From an uncultured Bacillota bacterium (GTDB lineage Bacteria > Bacillota_I > Bacilli_A > RF39 > UBA660), in assembly GCA_947168485.1 (NCBI GenBank), contig CAMVLZ010000010.1, positions 1 through 44,862 of the forward strand: 44,862 nt of DNA, read 5' to 3'. Both the position numbers and the translations under genes were made by a program. The number at the start of each line of letters is the position of its first letter. Position 1 is the stretch's first letter. Below, piece after piece: positions 82 through 34,705 of the stretch. Under the pieces are notes generated by a model. It searched no databases, was not told where the DNA came from, and saw nothing but the letters and a program-made list of their open reading frames with translations.

Positions 82-108
82 AAAACTAGTGTTTTAAGCA
101 CTAGTTTT
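82..108 (-). terminator. Hairpin terminator of the cytosine methyltransferase gene
   Basis: A perfect 10-bp inverted repeat (82-91 with 99-108, 7-nt loop) overlaps the stop codon of the leftward methyltransferase gene. Read on the minus strand it ends in a short T run. The arms start with AAAA and end with TTTT, so it may work in both directions. Bases 1-81 hold no gene I can see. Confidence 0.6.
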
Positions 109-1339
109 CATTTTCAATTATTTTTTCAATTTCAGTTCCAATTTTCTCTATTACCCCAACTACCAAAGCATTACCCATCATGAAATATCTTCTCTTATCG
201 GACATTCCTGTATTAGTCCAGTCATCTGGGAAACCATTTATTCTTTCACATTCTTTTGGAGTAAGAAGTCTTGGCTTTTTAGTTTTAAAGTCCTCAATGA
301 CATGTGTAGTTCTACTAACTCCACTTTCACTTGTAAGCATTGTTCTAGCAGGTGCGTCTAAATTATCTGGAAAAGGCATTGCTCCTTCTGTGTAATAATA
401 TGGATCACCATTAGGTTTTACTCTAGGAATTTTTTTACTACCTTTTAAGAAAGCAAACTTTTGAATTTGAGATTCATTTAAGAAATACTTCTCATCAACA
501 GGATTTTCTTCTCTAATATTTCTTAAAGGATAAACTAAATTATAATCAGCTTTTACTTTTACTGTATAAATTCCACCGTTCTTCATAATACCAGCATTGT
601 AGAATGAACATTTAAACATATTACTAACTTCTATTAAATCTTTGTATTCAGCAATACTAGATTCAGTTATTTCTTCATAGCTTTCTTTAATAGGAAATTG
701 TTTAACAAACATTCCTTTAGAAAATATCATGTCATAATCAGAATTCTTTTGCATTTTTTTATAATACTTAGTGTTTTTACGATAAGCAAATATATAAGTT
801 CTTCTTCTTTTTTGAGGTAGTCCATATTCTCCAGCATTAATAACTCTCCATTCAACGTCATATCCGTTTTCATAGAAACTTCTAAGAATCATGCCAAAAT
901 CTCTACCTCTTTGTTTAGCAGGAGATAATAACAATCTATCAACATTCTCTAATAGAACAAATGGAGGTTTTTTAATAGCTAGTGTTTCTTCGATTGCCCA
1001 CCAAAGAACACCTTTCTTTCCCTCAATACCTTTACTATTTGAAAGAGTTTGAGCCACTGAATAGTCTTGACAAGGGAATCCACCAACTAAAAGAGTATGG
1101 TCAGGAATATTATGTTTATCTACTTCAAAGATATCAACGTTAGAAACATCATCAGCACCGAATCTCATTGCATAACAATCATATGCTTCTTGAGATTTAG
1201 TAGCAGGTTCCCATTGATTAGCCCATAAACATTTCCAATTTCCATTTTCAATAGTTTTGCCATCTTTTAATTCTACATGATTAAGACCACAACGGAATCC
1301 ACCAACTCCTGCAAATAATTCAACCAAAGTTTTTTTCAT
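101..1339 (-). CDS. DNA (cytosine-5) methyltransferase of a type II R-M system, predicted GATC-specific
   Basis: This is a C5-cytosine methyltransferase that protects host DNA from the divergently encoded nuclease. Motif I (FAGVGGFR) is at residues 9-16, the PCQ motif with catalytic Cys90 at 89-91, ENV at 131-133 and QKRRR (motif VIII) at 176-180. A C-terminal MGNALVVGV segment fits motif X. At 412 aa it has the usual size for the HhaI/Sau3AI class. The start is an ATG behind an AGGAGG ribosome binding site. The GATC specificity is inferred from the neighbouring nuclease, which matches the MutH/Sau3AI fold; the product would then be GAT-5mC. The gene looks a little richer in G+C than its neighbours, consistent with acquisition by transfer. 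The family call is firm and the sequence specificity is an inference. Confidence 0.93.
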   Translation of the reverse strand: MKKTLVELFAGVGGFRCGLNHVELKDGKTIENGNWKCLWANQWEPATKSQEAYDCYAMRFGADDVSNVDIFEVDKHNIPDHTLLVGGFPCQDYSVAQTLSNSKGIEGKKGVLWWAIEETLAIKKPPFVLLENVDRLLLSPAKQRGRDFGMILRSFYENGYDVEWRVINAGEYGLPQKRRRTYIFAYRKNTKYYKKMQKNSDYDMIFSKGMFVKQFPIKESYEEITESSIAEYKDLIEVSNMFKCSFYNAGIMKNGGIYTVKVKADYNLVYPLRNIREENPVDEKYFLNESQIQKFAFLKGSKKIPRVKPNGDPYYYTEGAMPFPDNLDAPARTMLTSESGVSRTTHVIEDFKTKKPRLLTPKECERINGFPDDWTNTGMSDKRRYFMMGNALVVGVIEKIGTEIEKIIENEN

Positions 1340-1513
1340 ATATAAAACCTCCTGTTATTTGTATTAACGATATAAATATATTATAATTTATTTGAGTGAA
1401 AAGATCAACTTTTACCTATAATTATTATATAATAATAGGCATAAAAGATCAACCTTACCTAACACTATTTTATAAAAAATAAAGTTAAAAAACAAGATCG
1501 AAAGGAGAATTTT
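1340..1513. promoter_or_regulatory. Shared R-M control region with GATC-containing repeats
   Basis: The 174-bp divergent intergenic region carries three GATC sites (1403-1406, 1447-1450, 1496-1499). Two lie in near-identical repeats at 1399-1417 and 1443-1460 (AAAAGATCAAC followed by TTTTACCT or CTTACCT), 44 bp apart. The first is also imperfectly palindromic (AAAAG, 5 bases, CTTTT). The third GATC is just before the nuclease ribosome binding site. I read these as binding or methylation-sensing sites for autoregulation. Confidence 0.5.
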
Positions 1514-2899
1514 ATGAAAAAAGGAAGAGAATATGATAGACATGAAATAGAAGTAATATCTAAATCTGCAATAGGTAAATCAGTGAATGATATTCTTAAT
1601 GAAGAACTAATTACTATTGAAGATGAAAATACATTAAATAAAGGTGGATTAGGCCAATATATAGAACAATATTTGTTTGGTATTGATAATAATAGTGAAT
1701 CTGAACCAGATTTCATGCCTGCAGGAATTGAATTAAAAGTTACTCCTTATAAAAAGATTAAAGATGGTAAGCTATCTGCAAAAGAAAGATTGGTATTAAA
1801 TATCATTGATTTTATGAATGAGTATAAAAATGAATTTAAAACTAGTCACTTTTGGTTTAAAAATAATACGATTCAATTACTATGGTATTTATGGGAACCT
1901 AATAAATCTAAAAAAGACTTTAAAATAACACATGAAAAACTACTAGAATTATCAAAGAATGAAGATTTAAAACAAATAGAAGAAGACTGGAATTTTATTA
2001 TTCAAAAAATCAAAGATGGAAAAGCTCATGAAATATCAGAAGCTGATACTATGTACTTAGGAGCTTGTTCAAAAGGAGCTAATGCTAGTTCTACAAGAGA
2101 ACAACCATTTAGTGATATCCCTGCAATGCAAAGAGCATTCTGCTTTAAAACATCTTATATGACTCAATTAGTAAGAAAATATATTGGAGATTATTCAGAT
2201 GTTGAAAAGGTATTAAAAGGAACTACAGATACATTTAATGAATTTGTAAGAGAAGTTGTAGATAAATATAAAGGTAAATCACAAAAGGAATTGATGAAAG
2301 AATTTAATATTGATTCTAAAGCTAAAAACATTAATAGTATGATTATTAGTAGGATGTTTAATGTAAAAAGTAAATTACAAGATACAGATGAATTTCAAAA
2401 AGCAAATATCATTCCTAAAACAATTCGAATTGAAGAGAATGGAAGAATTAAGGAATCAATTTCATTTCCTGCATTCAAATTTACTGACATAGTAGAGCAA
2501 AGCTGGGAAGACTGTGATTTAAGAGAACAACTCGAGACAACTAAATATATGTTTTTTGTATTTAAGAAAGAAAAAGGAGAATATATATTTAAAGGAATCA
2601 AATTATGGAATATGCCTGAAACTGATATTGAAATACCAGTAATGGAGATGTGGAAGAAAACATATAATGCAATTAAAACAGGAAATATTATTAAATCAAT
2701 TACTAACGGTATAAGAAAAACTAATTTTCCAGGAATGAGTGAGAATAATGTATGTCATGTTAGACCTCACGGAAGAAATGCTAAAGATGTTAACAAGCTA
2801 CCAGTAGCTGATAAATTAACAGGAGCAACAGAGTATACTAAACATTGTTTCTGGATTAACAACACATATATAAAAGAAATATTTAAAGAGTTTAATTAA
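1514..2899 (+). CDS. Sau3AI/MutH-type type II restriction endonuclease
   Basis: This is the predicted restriction partner of the methyltransferase. Residues 66-75 contain D66, E73 and K75, which gives the D-x6-E-x-K catalytic spacing of MutH and Sau3AI. An upstream NKGGLGQYIE block (42-51) matches the KGxxGxxxE region of the same fold. The length of 461 aa is close to Sau3AI, which pairs a catalytic MutH-like domain with a second MutH-like DNA-binding domain, so residues ~220-461 probably form the latter. The start ATG follows an AAAGGAG site. MutH, Sau3AI and relatives act on GATC, so GATC is the predicted target. I found no GATC in the 1,386-bp gene itself, one in the methyltransferase gene and another just past this gene's stop (2906). 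Confidence 0.88.
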   Translation: MKKGREYDRHEIEVISKSAIGKSVNDILNEELITIEDENTLNKGGLGQYIEQYLFGIDNNSESEPDFMPAGIELKVTPYKKIKDGKLSAKERLVLNIIDFMNEYKNEFKTSHFWFKNNTIQLLWYLWEPNKSKKDFKITHEKLLELSKNEDLKQIEEDWNFIIQKIKDGKAHEISEADTMYLGACSKGANASSTREQPFSDIPAMQRAFCFKTSYMTQLVRKYIGDYSDVEKVLKGTTDTFNEFVREVVDKYKGKSQKELMKEFNIDSKAKNINSMIISRMFNVKSKLQDTDEFQKANIIPKTIRIEENGRIKESISFPAFKFTDIVEQSWEDCDLREQLETTKYMFFVFKKEKGEYIFKGIKLWNMPETDIEIPVMEMWKKTYNAIKTGNIIKSITNGIRKTNFPGMSENNVCHVRPHGRNAKDVNKLPVADKLTGATEYTKHCFWINNTYIKEIFKEFN

Positions 2900-7145: not shown

Positions 7146-7174
7146 TTGACATATATTTATTAATAATATAAAAT
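7146..7174 (+). promoter_or_regulatory. Consensus promoter of the ABC-F leader
   Basis: A perfect TTGACA (7146-7151), a 17-bp spacer and TAAAAT (7169-7174). Transcription would start near 7181, just before the AAGGAG site of the 14-codon leader ORF. Confidence 0.75.
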
Positions 7175-7195
7175 ATTATGCAAGGAGAGATGATT

Positions 7196-7240
7196 ATGCT
7201 TAATTATTATGCAAAAACTAGATTATATAATAAAGCATAG
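7196..7240 (+). CDS. 14-codon leader peptide upstream of the ABC-F gene
   Basis: A tiny ORF, MLNYYAKTRLYNKA, begins at ATG 7196 behind an AAGGAGAG site at 7182-7189. Its TAG stop ends at 7240, and that final G is the first base of the first downstream hairpin. Antibiotic-resistance ABC-F genes in Firmicutes are known to be controlled by drug-stalled ribosomes on such leaders. The placement between a consensus promoter and an attenuator argues strongly that it is translated and acts as the sensor. The peptide itself probably has no other function. Confidence 0.7.
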   Translation: MLNYYAKTRLYNKA

Positions 7241-7337
7241 TCATACCTGGTAATTAAAATAATCTATTAGCAGGTATGACAGTTTTTGTCGTGCCTGCAT
7301 CCGCCAAATGGATGTGGATACGTCTATTTGGTTTTTT
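7240..7337 (+). promoter_or_regulatory. Transcription attenuator with mutually exclusive hairpins
   Basis: Four pairings can be drawn. H1: 7240-7249 with 7271-7280, perfect 10 bp. H2: 7271-7280 with 7288-7297, 10 bp with two G-U pairs. Antiterminator: 7290-7302 with 7310-7322, 12 pairs and one C-A mismatch. Terminator: 7304-7314 with 7321-7331, 11 bp, 6-nt loop, then six T. H1 excludes H2, H2 excludes the antiterminator, and the antiterminator excludes the terminator. So H1 plus antiterminator is the ON state and H2 plus terminator is the OFF state. A ribosome stalled early on the leader leaves H1 free to form (ON); one that reaches the stop at 7240 blocks it (OFF). Confidence 0.75.
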
Positions 7338-7362
7338 ATATGCATAAAAGGAGAGATAGATT

Positions 7363-8964
7363 ATGATAGAAATAAGTTTAAATAATATAAAAAAATCATT
7401 TGGATTTAAAAATATATTAGATGGAATAAATATTGAAATAAAAACAGGAGATAGATTAGCTATTATAGGTGAAAATGGTTGTGGAAAAACCACTATACTT
7501 AATATTATTAGTTCTATAGAAAAACCTGATAATGGTACTATCGCAATAAGAAAAGGAGCAAAAATAGGTTATTTGAATCAACAACCAGAAACTACTTATA
7601 ATAATAAAATAGTTAAAGATATCTTATATGAAAGTTTTAAAGAAATACTTGAATATGAAAGAAAATTAAAATCATATGAAGAAAAAATGATTAAAGAACC
7701 AGAAAATATAAATATTATAAATAAATATTTAAGTATTCAAGAGAAATTTATGGAGATCGGTGGATATGAAATAAACACATCAATTGAAAAAATAACTCAT
7801 GGCCTTAATATTAACAATTTAATAAATAATAAATATGAAGATTTATCTGGAGGAGAACAAAAAAGAGTTATTCTAGCAGCTCTAATTATTAAGAAACCAG
7901 ATATACTACTTTTAGATGAACCAACTAATCATTTAGATATAAATACATTAGAATGGTTAGAAGACTTTTTAAATAAATACAAAGGAACTATAGTAATAGT
8001 CTCACATGATAGATATTTCCTAGATAAAATAACTACTAAAACCATATTAATAGAAAATGGTAAATCCATAATATTTCATTGTAATTATTCTAATTATTTA
8101 AAAGAAAATGAAGAAAGAATAGAAAAAGAATTTAAAGAGTATAAAGATCAACAAAAATTGATCGCAGCTCTAAAAAAGAAAATAAAACAATTAGAAGAAT
8201 TTGGAAGATTAGCTTATCCAGGAGGAGAACCATTCTATAAAAGAGCAGAAAATATTAGAAAGAGATTAGAGAGAATAGAAAAGAAAGAAAAACCAATTAT
8301 TAAAAAAGAATTACCAATTAATTTTAATATTGATAAAAGATCAGGTAAAGATGTTCTAACTATAAATAATTATGATTTATATATAGATTCTAATCTTCTA
8401 ATAAAAAATATAAATATAAAGATTAGTTATAATGACAAAATATGTATTATAGGAAATAATGGTTGTGGAAAATCTACTTTATTAAAAACAATAATTAATA
8501 ATTCTTCTAATAATATAAAACTAGGTACTAATATTAAAATTGGTTATATACCACAACAAATAAATTATAATGATGATATAACTATTCTAGATTATGCTAG
8601 AAAATACTTCATAGGTGATGAAACTCATTTAAGAAGTGCTTTATCTAAATTTCAATTTTATGGTGAAAATGTATTTAAAAAGATATCTAAATTATCAGGA
8701 GGAGAAAAAGTAAGATTAAAATTATTTGCTTTAATACAAGATAATTGTAATTTTATCATTTTAGATGAACCTACTAATCATATTGATATTTCTACAAAAG
8801 AAACATTAGAAGAAGCTCTTAAATCATATGATGGAACAACATTATTTGTATCACATGATAGATATTTTATTAATCAACTAGCTAATAAAATATTTTATAT
8901 ATCAGATAAAAGGATAACTGAATATTATGGTAATTATAATTTCTTTATAGAACATAAAAAATAA
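7363..8964 (+). CDS. ABC-F family ATPase, probable antibiotic-resistance ribosome protection protein
   Basis: A soluble duplicated ABC ATPase without membrane segments that would act at the ribosomal E site to dislodge bound drugs. First cassette: Walker A GENGCGKT (36-43), signature LSGGEQKR (161-168), Walker B ILLLDEPTNHLD (181-192). Second cassette: Walker A GNNGCGKST (364-372), signature LSGGEKVR and FIILDEPTNHID. The interdomain linker (about 240-315) is charged and helical, with GRLAYPGGEPFYKRAENIRKR-type residues, and is where drug specificity lies in this family. The length of 533 aa fits the Vga/Lsa/VmlR range better than the housekeeping EttA or Uup types. The start ATG has AAGGAG. 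The attenuator in front supports a resistance role; the drug class cannot be predicted. Confidence 0.9.
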   Translation: MIEISLNNIKKSFGFKNILDGINIEIKTGDRLAIIGENGCGKTTILNIISSIEKPDNGTIAIRKGAKIGYLNQQPETTYNNKIVKDILYESFKEILEYERKLKSYEEKMIKEPENINIINKYLSIQEKFMEIGGYEINTSIEKITHGLNINNLINNKYEDLSGGEQKRVILAALIIKKPDILLLDEPTNHLDINTLEWLEDFLNKYKGTIVIVSHDRYFLDKITTKTILIENGKSIIFHCNYSNYLKENEERIEKEFKEYKDQQKLIAALKKKIKQLEEFGRLAYPGGEPFYKRAENIRKRLERIEKKEKPIIKKELPINFNIDKRSGKDVLTINNYDLYIDSNLLIKNINIKISYNDKICIIGNNGCGKSTLLKTIINNSSNNIKLGTNIKIGYIPQQINYNDDITILDYARKYFIGDETHLRSALSKFQFYGENVFKKISKLSGGEKVRLKLFALIQDNCNFIILDEPTNHIDISTKETLEEALKSYDGTTLFVSHDRYFINQLANKIFYISDKRITEYYGNYNFFIEHKK

Positions 8965-33120: not shown

Positions 33121-33819
33121 ATGGACTTAATTAGACTTAAGAATATCACTAAAAAATATAAAAATGGAGTAACTGCCATCTATGATTTATCTTTAGCGAT
33201 AGAGAAGGGGTCATTTACATTTGTAATTGGTGGTTCAGGTTCAGGAAAATCAACATTAATTAAAATGTTGTATAGAGAAGAAAAACCAACAAGTGGACAA
33301 ATCATCTTAGGAGGACTTAATGTTGCTAAATTACGTGATGGAAAAGTTTATAAATTAAGAAGAAAATTAGGAATAGTATTCCAAGATTATAGATTGTTAG
33401 AAAAGCAAACAGTATATGAAAATGTTGCATTTGCTTTAGAAGTTATAGGAGCACCAGATTCTGAAATAAGACCAAAAGTTTTAAGAGCACTTGAAGAAGT
33501 TGGTTTAAAGAATAAGGTTCATGAATATCCTGATAAGTTATCAGGAGGAGAAAGACAACGTGTCGCAATCGCAAGAGCCATAGTAAATAATCCTAAATTA
33601 TTACTATGTGATGAACCTACTGGTAACTTAGATCCAGAACTAAGTAAAGAAGTTATGGAAGTATTAGATTCAATCAATAAAAATAGAGGAACAACTATCA
33701 TAATGGCTACACATGATAGAGATATAGTTAATAGAATGAAAAAACAAGTAGTTACATTAAAACAAGGACACTTAGTAAGCTTTGTAGAGGAAGGAAAATA
33801 TAACGATGAAGGCATTTAG
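33121..33819 (+). CDS. ftsE: Cell division ATP-binding protein FtsE
   Basis: The ATPase of the FtsEX complex, 232 aa, bound to the inner face of the membrane. Walker A GGSGSGKS (37-44), Q-loop VFQDYRLLEKQTVYENVAF, signature LSGGERQRVAIARA and Walker B LLLCDEPTGNLD are intact, with switch His in ATHDRD. The DYRLL after the Q-loop is typical of FtsE. ATP hydrolysis drives conformational changes in FtsX that switch on a peptidoglycan hydrolase, here encoded two genes downstream. It overlaps ftsX by 14 bases. Confidence 0.96.
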   Translation: MDLIRLKNITKKYKNGVTAIYDLSLAIEKGSFTFVIGGSGSGKSTLIKMLYREEKPTSGQIILGGLNVAKLRDGKVYKLRRKLGIVFQDYRLLEKQTVYENVAFALEVIGAPDSEIRPKVLRALEEVGLKNKVHEYPDKLSGGERQRVAIARAIVNNPKLLLCDEPTGNLDPELSKEVMEVLDSINKNRGTTIIMATHDRDIVNRMKKQVVTLKQGHLVSFVEEGKYNDEGI

Positions 33820-34705
33820 AATGTTAAAAAGAAGCATAAGAGATGCTTTTAAAAGTGTAATAAGAAATCTATCTTTATCATTTGCTTCAGTAACTTGTAT
33901 AACAATAACTCTATTAATAGTCGCAATCGCAATAATTGCTTCTAGAAATGTAGAAAACTTTACAAGTGAAATAGAAAAAGATTTAACAATAGTAGCCTTT
34001 GTTAAAAATGAAGCAAAAGAATCTGATATAGATGAATTAAAAGATAAATTAGATAATATGTCTAATGTAGAAAAATATGATTATCAAACAAAACAAGAAG
34101 TAAAAAAACATATGCAAGAAGAATCAGAAGTATTTGATACTGTATTAGAAGGATGGAGTGATGAAGAATCTCCTCTAAAAGATACTTTTCAAATTAAGGT
34201 AAAAGATGTTAACAAAATAAAAGATACTGCAGAAAAAATCAAAGGTTTTGAAAATATCGCAACTGTTAAATATGGAGAAGGTTTAGTTGATAAGTTAATT
34301 AAAGCTTTTGATTCTGTAAAGAAAGGTACTTATATTTTAGTTATAGCGCTTGTAGTAGTAACAGTATTCTTAATTGTTAATACTATTAAACTTACAATAT
34401 CTGCTCGTAAGAGAGAAATTGGTATCATGAGAGTTGTAGGAGCAAGTAACTTTAGTATAAAATTACCATTCGTAATAGAAGGAATGTTCTTAGGACTATT
34501 AGGATCAATTATCCCAATAGTTGGAATGATATATGGTTATACTTATTTCTATAATAAATCTGGAGGATACCTATATTCTGAAATAGTTAAATTAATTCAA
34601 CCAGATCCATTCATTTATCATAGTTCATTAATTTTACTATTAATAGGAGTTATAGTAGGTATGTTAGGATCATTAAGTGCAGTAAGAAGGTATTTAAAGA
34701 TATGA
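33806..34705 (+). CDS. ftsX: Cell division protein FtsX
   Basis: The membrane partner of FtsE, 299 aa. One N-terminal span (about 22-45) is followed by a ~130-residue extracellular domain (EIEKDLTIVAFVKNEAKESD to LVDKLIKAFD) that binds the hydrolase, then three more spans (about 175-195, 220-245 and 267-290). The RKREIGIMRVVGASNFSIKLPFVIEG coupling segment is the FtsX hallmark. The gene overlaps ftsE upstream and the hydrolase gene downstream (ATGA), so all three are translationally coupled. Confidence 0.95.
   Translation: MKAFRMLKRSIRDAFKSVIRNLSLSFASVTCITITLLIVAIAIIASRNVENFTSEIEKDLTIVAFVKNEAKESDIDELKDKLDNMSNVEKYDYQTKQEVKKHMQEESEVFDTVLEGWSDEESPLKDTFQIKVKDVNKIKDTAEKIKGFENIATVKYGEGLVDKLIKAFDSVKKGTYILVIALVVVTVFLIVNTIKLTISARKREIGIMRVVGASNFSIKLPFVIEGMFLGLLGSIIPIVGMIYGYTYFYNKSGGYLYSEIVKLIQPDPFIYHSSLILLLIGVIVGMLGSLSAVRRYLKI

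What the first reader, a model, noticed from the sequence alone, without database searches (positions are those of the whole stretch)
7146..7362. Complete leader-ORF attenuator in front of an ABC-F resistance gene
A consensus promoter, a 14-codon ORF and four mutually exclusive hairpins form two full alternatives. ON is H1 (7240-7249/7271-7280) plus an antiterminator (7290-7302/7310-7322). OFF is H2 (7271-7280/7288-7297) plus a terminator (7304-7314/7321-7331, then T6). H1 starts at the last base of the leader stop codon. A ribosome finishing the leader would cover the H1 arm and cause termination; a drug-stalled ribosome would leave it free and cause readthrough. ABC-F genes are known to be attenuated this way, but this leader and its switch logic look distinct.
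Basis: partly seen in the sequence, partly recalled or inferred. Interest (0 to 1): 0.72.

Follow-up and report, generated by a model that had tools for sequence, protein, structure and literature searches.

The report
Stalled-ribosome switch before ABC-F gene
In a family of uncultured gut bacteria, a short leader RNA appears to let a ribosome-protection-type gene be transcribed only when a ribosome gets stuck at one place in a tiny leader peptide, and closely similar switches with histidine codons instead sit in front of histidine genes.

Summary
In detail: promoter, 14-codon leader ORF, H1, H2, antiterminator and terminator are all at the stated coordinates. It is not unique. I found 24 related leaders in front of orthologous ABC-F genes in one family of uncultured Bacilli, and the alternative helices covary. 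With H0 the logic has three states: no ribosome is OFF, a ribosome that finishes the leader is OFF, and only a ribosome stalled near codons 9-11 is ON. Folding places the switch point where the P site leaves the Met of a conserved Ile-Met-Tyr motif. The window's own copy is atypical: its motif reads Arg-Leu-Tyr, and equilibrium folding favours termination even when stalled, so its ON state would rest on folding kinetics. A weaker family of matching leaders carries His codons at the equivalent place and precedes hisG and hisS; this supports the polarity stall = ON. The inducer is unknown, and sequence cannot settle whether this ABC-F confers resistance. Verdict: a new variant of ribosome-mediated transcription attenuation, computationally well supported, experimentally untested.

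The parts
7146..7174 (+). sigma-70-type promoter TTGACA-N17-TAAAAT
   Evidence: a similar promoter 20-25 nt before the leader start in relatives
7183..7201 (+). leader Shine-Dalgarno and start region = 5' arm of H0 (7183-7185 AGG, 7190-7201 ATGATTATGCTT)
   Evidence: fold; conserved helix in relatives
7196..7240 (+). leader ORF, 14 codons, MLNYYAKTRLYNKA
   Evidence: relatives MLNYFERTIMYVLA and similar
7220..7228 (+). codons 9-11 (Arg-Leu-Tyr), at the place of the Ile-Met-Tyr motif of relatives; predicted switch point
   Evidence: ribosome-position scans
7233..7248 (+). 3' arm of H0 (7233-7244 and 7246-7248), overlaps arm 1 of H1
7240..7249 (+). arm 1, 5' arm of H1
7271..7280 (+). arm 2, 3' arm of H1 and 5' arm of H2
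7288..7297 (+). arm 3, 3' arm of H2
7290..7302 (+). 5' arm of the antiterminator
7310..7322 (+). 3' arm of the antiterminator
7303..7332 (+). terminator hairpin, 13 pairs, loop of 4
7332..7337 (+). T6 tract of the intrinsic terminator
7347..7355 (+). Shine-Dalgarno region of the ABC-F gene (AAAGGAGAG)
7363..8964 (+). ABC-F gene, 533 aa, ribosomal protection-like
   Evidence: NF000355, 443 bits against cut-off 380; two ABC_tran stretches plus ABC_tran_Xtn

Best explanation
The region 7146-7362 is a ribosome-controlled transcription attenuator of the ABC-F gene, built as a chain of segments in which each can pair with the next: SD/start (0), arm 1, arm 2, arm 3/antiterminator 5' side, terminator 5' side, terminator 3' side. 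Without a ribosome 0 pairs with 1 (H0), so 2 pairs with 3 (H2) and the terminator forms. A ribosome that runs to the stop codon covers arm 1, so H2 and the terminator form again. Only a ribosome held near codons 9-11 opens H0 and still leaves arm 1 free, so H1 forms, arm 3 is released, the antiterminator forms and the polymerase reads into the ABC-F gene. In relatives the holding signal is most likely a nascent peptide ending Ile-Met-Tyr (arrest with Met or Gly in the P site and Tyr in the A site), probably helped by a ribosome-binding antibiotic of the kind ABC-F proteins remove. The alternative pairings and their conservation are shown by sequence comparison; the effect of ribosome position is computed by folding; stalling, the inducer and resistance are inferred.
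For: 24 related leaders precede ABC-F genes. Covariation in H1 (five pairs with two-sided changes, 94% of cells paired, against at most 45% when slid), H2 (99% against at most 50%), antiterminator and terminator and, more weakly, H0 (84% against at most 59%). P(term) masked 0.92-0.99 in all 24; arm 1 free <0.5 in 14; shuffled arm 1 ON in only 10 of 1440. No ribosome: P(term) at least 0.91 in 19 of 22. Switch point at Met/Tyr of the conserved I-x-Y motif, arm 1 mostly 12-14 nt downstream of the Tyr codon although the stop codon moves. Motif codons vary synonymously (R: CGC/CGT/AGA; I: ATC/ATT/ATA). Matching leaders with His codons at the equivalent place precede hisG and hisS, where starvation-stall = ON is the expected direction.
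Against: The window's own leader lacks Ile-Met (Arg-Leu-Tyr instead) and is predicted to terminate at equilibrium for every ribosome position (minimum 0.86). Several close relatives (L010, L011, L012, L085) behave alike. Three leaders (L093, L095, L097) do not show the unoccupied-OFF state clearly. No expression data; most sequences are metagenome-assembled. Stalling and inducer are untested, and the ABC-F is not clearly in a resistance clade.
Confidence: 0.8

Rival explanations
1. The same attenuator senses charged tRNA (tyrosine most likely), not a drug: the last ON position has the Tyr codon in the A site, as the His codon is in the His leaders.
For: The Tyr codon is the most constant motif residue and the window keeps it; the matching His leaders are evidently tRNA sensors.
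Against: Ile and Met before it are conserved as well, with synonymous drift; Phe replaces Tyr in L090 and L098; there is one control codon, not a tandem; an ABC-F gene is not an amino-acid gene.
Confidence: 0.1
2. Two-state attenuator exactly as first described, without a working H0: an untranslated leader is ON.
For: Arm 1 free gives readthrough in 14 of 24 leaders; L093 and L097 lack a strong H0.
Against: H0 is conserved and covaries and gives P(term) of at least 0.91 in 19 of 22; in the experimentally studied relatives hflXr and vmlR loss of the leader start codon abolishes induction (PMC6310831; PMC9226507).
Confidence: 0.1
3. A ligand-binding riboswitch in which the short ORF is incidental.
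For: Mutually exclusive helices and a terminator are also riboswitch features.
Against: No Rfam family matched; conserved leader peptide with synonymous drift; constant spacing from the motif to arm 1 while the stop codon moves; His-codon versions.
Confidence: 0.03
4. In the window the sensor is decayed or re-tuned: the Lys-Thr-Arg in codons 7-9 fits the +X+ macrolide-arrest pattern, or the leader is now mostly OFF.
For: The window alone among 24 lost Ile-Met and contains Lys-X-Arg; the +X+ motif is documented for MefAL, ErmDL and HflXr leaders (PMC10314930; PMC6310831). H1, H2, antiterminator and ORF are intact.
Against: Single genome; P(term) is high at all positions; a three-residue pattern is weak evidence.
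Confidence: 0.3

Closest known systems
vmlR leader of Bacillus subtilis (PMC9226507)
   Same: Ribosome-mediated transcription attenuation in front of an ABC-F gene: uORF, anti-antiterminator, antiterminator, terminator.
   Different: vmlR has a three-codon uORF (MIN) inside its anti-antiterminator, and stalling at initiation breaks that hairpin. Here a longer leader lies upstream and stalling permits an extra hairpin (H1) that breaks the anti-antiterminator (H2); no sequence relation was found.
hflXr/rli80 of Listeria monocytogenes (PMC6310831)
   Same: 14-codon leader, anti-antiterminator/antiterminator/terminator set, readthrough on stalling; start-codon loss abolishes induction.
   Different: Gene is a HflX homologue; leader has RLR; the ORF overlaps the anti-antiterminator directly, without the H0/H1 relay.
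msrD leader (MsrDL, MYLIFM; PMC10314930) and mefA leader
   Same: Drug-dependent leader arrest controlling an ABC-F gene by termination.
   Different: In msrD the stalled ribosome itself obstructs the terminator; no relay of hairpins.
trp/his-type amino-acid attenuators of enterobacteria; candidate His attenuators of Erysipelotrichales (PMC9413887)
   Same: Three-state logic (no ribosome OFF, stalled ON, finished OFF) with a protector hairpin; the His versions found here use a matching relay.
   Different: Extra link in the chain (five alternating helices) and, before ABC-F, an Ile-Met-Tyr motif in place of tandem control codons. Whether the Erysipelotrichales candidates have the same RNA was not tested.

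Membership tests
Ribosome-mediated transcription attenuators | Short translated-looking leader ORF with SD between promoter and terminator | tested here: met
   conserved in relatives
Ribosome-mediated transcription attenuators | Mutually exclusive antiterminator and intrinsic terminator | tested here: met
Ribosome-mediated transcription attenuators | Ribosome position decides which forms | tested here: inconclusive
   Folding model: met in 14 of 24 relatives at equilibrium, only weakly in the window; not measured
Ribosome-mediated transcription attenuators | Ribosome stalls on the leader under an inducing condition | not testable with these tools
   needs toeprinting or reporter assays
Antibiotic-resistance (ARE) ABC-F proteins | ABC-F domain architecture | tested here: met
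Antibiotic-resistance (ARE) ABC-F proteins | Sequence closer to ARE than to housekeeping ABC-Fs | tested here: inconclusive
   NF000355 passed (443 against 380), but named ARE models all below cut-off; profile bits YbiT 321, VmlR 318, Uup 313, EttA 310, PoxtA 288
Antibiotic-resistance (ARE) ABC-F proteins | Confers resistance | not testable with these tools
   needs MIC tests
[quoted passage not shown]
   Window has Lys-Thr-Arg; most relatives have Arg/Lys-Thr-Ile and lack it
Known Rfam leader families | Covariance-model match at gathering score | tested here: not met

The most novel reading that the evidence does not exclude
One modular RNA relay in this bacterial family has been fitted with two kinds of ribosome-stall sensor: tandem His codons in front of hisG, hisS and a histidine-racemase-like gene, and an Ile-Met-Tyr arrest peptide in front of an ABC-F gene. 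Drug-stress and amino-acid attenuators would then share a common origin, and Ile-x-Tyr would be an undescribed arrest motif.
Probability: 0.4. Interest if true: 0.7.

Novelty: new variant of a known kind. Interest (0 to 1): 0.52.

Why it matters
It gives a compact, phylogenetically supported example of an attenuator in which stalling acts through a relay of alternating hairpins, with a precise predicted arrest site (Ile-Met in the tunnel, Tyr in the A site). If the His and ABC-F versions are related, it would show how bacteria turn an amino-acid sensor into a translation-stress sensor by changing a few codons. It also identifies a likely inducible ribosome-protection gene in uncultured ruminant-gut bacteria.

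Tried and rejected
Plasmid and phage collections for related leader DNA: nothing real. The class and phylum scans outside the family gave only marginal hits; inspected, they lie in coding or unrelated sequence (L099, L105-L108). R2 hits L129, L131 and L132 in the order scan rejected for the same reason. Upstream regions of the nearest named ABC-F relatives (Listeria, Staphylococcus, Acetoanaerobium, Enterococcus; 36-39% identity) show no such relay by eye. A simple reading in which an untranslated leader is ON was dropped after H0 was found. The thermodynamic switch is not clear in L137-L140 of the His group.

Full report
What is there. The window shows, in order, a TTGACA-N17-TAAAAT promoter (7146-7174), a 14-codon leader ORF (7196-7240), four alternative hairpins and an ABC-F gene (7363-8964). 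The 165-nt leader folds 6.35 standard deviations better than shuffles, and its terminator is the only terminator-like site in 2.4 kb, with 0.1 expected.

It is a family. Relatives of the ABC-F protein (55-82% identical) in a one-genome-per-species collection carry the same leader, and DNA and covariance-model searches of genomes of the window's family and order bring the set to 24. Titled records call the hosts uncultured Bacilli or Erysipelotrichaceae, several from ruminant guts. Twenty of 385 order genomes have a match with model R1, all preceding ABC-F genes; one of these ABC-F genes is broken in its assembly. Three congeners of the window's genome lack this ABC-F and have only 34-35% identical proteins, so it behaves as an accessory gene. 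No match was found in plasmids, phages or Rfam.

Conservation of the pairings. On a sequence-only alignment of 24 leaders H1 has 94% of cells paired and five pairs with two-sided changes; sliding the partner gives at most 45%. H2 has 99%. Antiterminator and terminator show covariation in the closer set of 12, and each divergent leader has its own complementary set, with the antiterminator least clear in L018. L092 is telling: arm 1, arm 2 and arm 3 have all changed and still pair both ways.

A fifth helix. The global fold pairs the leader's SD/start region with arm 1. Every one of the 22 leaders with upstream sequence folds into some form of this H0, with exchanges such as GATTATG:CATAGTC, GTGATTAC:GTAATCAC, GTGATACT:AGTATCAC. 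The pair count supports it less strongly than H1 and H2 (84% paired, 4 of 500 shuffles reach the covariation score). With full-length RNA P(term) is at least 0.91 in 19 of 22; exceptions are L093, L095 and L097. Shuffling the 5' 21 nt relieves termination in 74 of 440 trials, mostly in L044 and L089, so in many leaders other leader sequence also keeps arm 1 busy.

Ribosome position. I folded each leader with the RNA 5' of a ribosome's leading edge (P site +16) removed. When the P site is past the conserved Ile-x-Tyr motif, P(term) is 0.92-0.99 in all. At the Met (or Gly) of the motif it falls below 0.5 in 14 of 24, to 0.00-0.05 in ten of them. Shuffling arm 1 gives ON in only 10 of 1440 trials. 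The motif lies at a nearly constant distance from arm 1 (12-14 nt from the Tyr codon in most) while the stop codon is before, at or well after arm 1. The motif codons vary synonymously, pointing to selection on the peptide. So the constant thing is where a ribosome must be held, and the rest of the leader only has to let the ribosome run over arm 1.

The window's own copy. Its leader reads Lys-Thr-Arg-Leu-Tyr where others read Arg-Thr-Ile-Met-Tyr. Equilibrium folding gives P(term) 0.94 with arm 1 free and 0.71 with H1 locked, although the antiterminator is the best structure when the transcript has reached the middle of the terminator's 3' arm. The claim that this copy switches therefore rests on its relatives and on folding kinetics. 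Whether its sensor is decayed or re-tuned, for instance to macrolides through Lys-X-Arg, is open.

His versions. The broader model R2 also hit L128 (E = 1.3e-5) and L130. Both have the arm 3 core TTTGTCGTGCTTGTATC and His-rich leaders (MVKIVRYSIFNHVHNSLHLLIRH, MFKLVINKFNHHNSLHLLIRH). A DNA search of relatives found more, in front of hisG (L133, L135, L137), hisS (L136) and a histidine-racemase-like gene (L138, below cut-off). HisG was confirmed by family model only for L128 (the same locus as L133); L135 and L137 are read from sequence resemblance. R2 matched five of nine such loci at E of 0.002 or better and none of 52 kb of control loci. In L133 P(term) is 0.86 with the ribosome at the start, 0.01 with Val13 in the P site and His14 in the A site, and mostly 0.5-0.8 after the motif; L135 and L130 behave similarly, while L137-L140 do not switch clearly at equilibrium. 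Because histidine starvation should turn his genes on, these leaders independently support the polarity stall = ON. Common descent with the ABC-F leaders is plausible but unproven.

What it works like and what it is. It works like known attenuators of ABC-F and related genes (vmlR, hflXr, msrD) and, in its three-state logic, like amino-acid attenuators. It differs in the relay and in the leader peptide. The ABC-F protein passes NCBI's ribosomal-protection-like model, but its profile scores housekeeping and resistance ABC-Fs alike, so 'resistance gene' is an inference, strengthened by the kind of control.

Limits. Everything is computed. Most sequences are metagenome-assembled. Folding models ignore kinetics, pausing and proteins. 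The inducing condition is unknown.

Noticed in passing
L130, L133-L140 (e.g. L133:1450-1700): Family of His-codon leaders with a matching relay in front of hisG, hisS, a histidine-racemase-like gene, peptidases and other genes in the same bacterial family.
   Followed up: partly
window 7217-7228: The window's leader is the only one of 24 without Ile-Met/Ile-Gly before the Tyr/Phe; it has Lys-Thr-Arg-Leu-Tyr.
   Followed up: partly
L098: ABC-F frame is interrupted (in-frame stop and frame change) behind an intact attenuator: a pseudogene or an assembly error.
   Followed up: no
L100:671-1000 and L101:662-991: Upstream of 39% identical ABC-F genes in Listeria and Staphylococcus there are unrelated candidate leader ORFs beginning MFLLNARTS... 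and MFLIAYCC..., the Listeria one followed by a strong terminator-like hairpin.
   Followed up: no
window 101-2899: C-5 cytosine DNA methylase next to a MutH-domain protein, probably a restriction-modification pair.
   Followed up: no
window 33130-33840: ABC ATPase match with one TAG inside the aligned stretch; the same is reported for congener G209. May only be the gene's end.
   Followed up: no
window 7169-7196 and relatives: The -10 box ends only 20-25 nt before the leader start codon, so the transcript would start almost at the SD, which may help early ribosome loading.
   Followed up: partly
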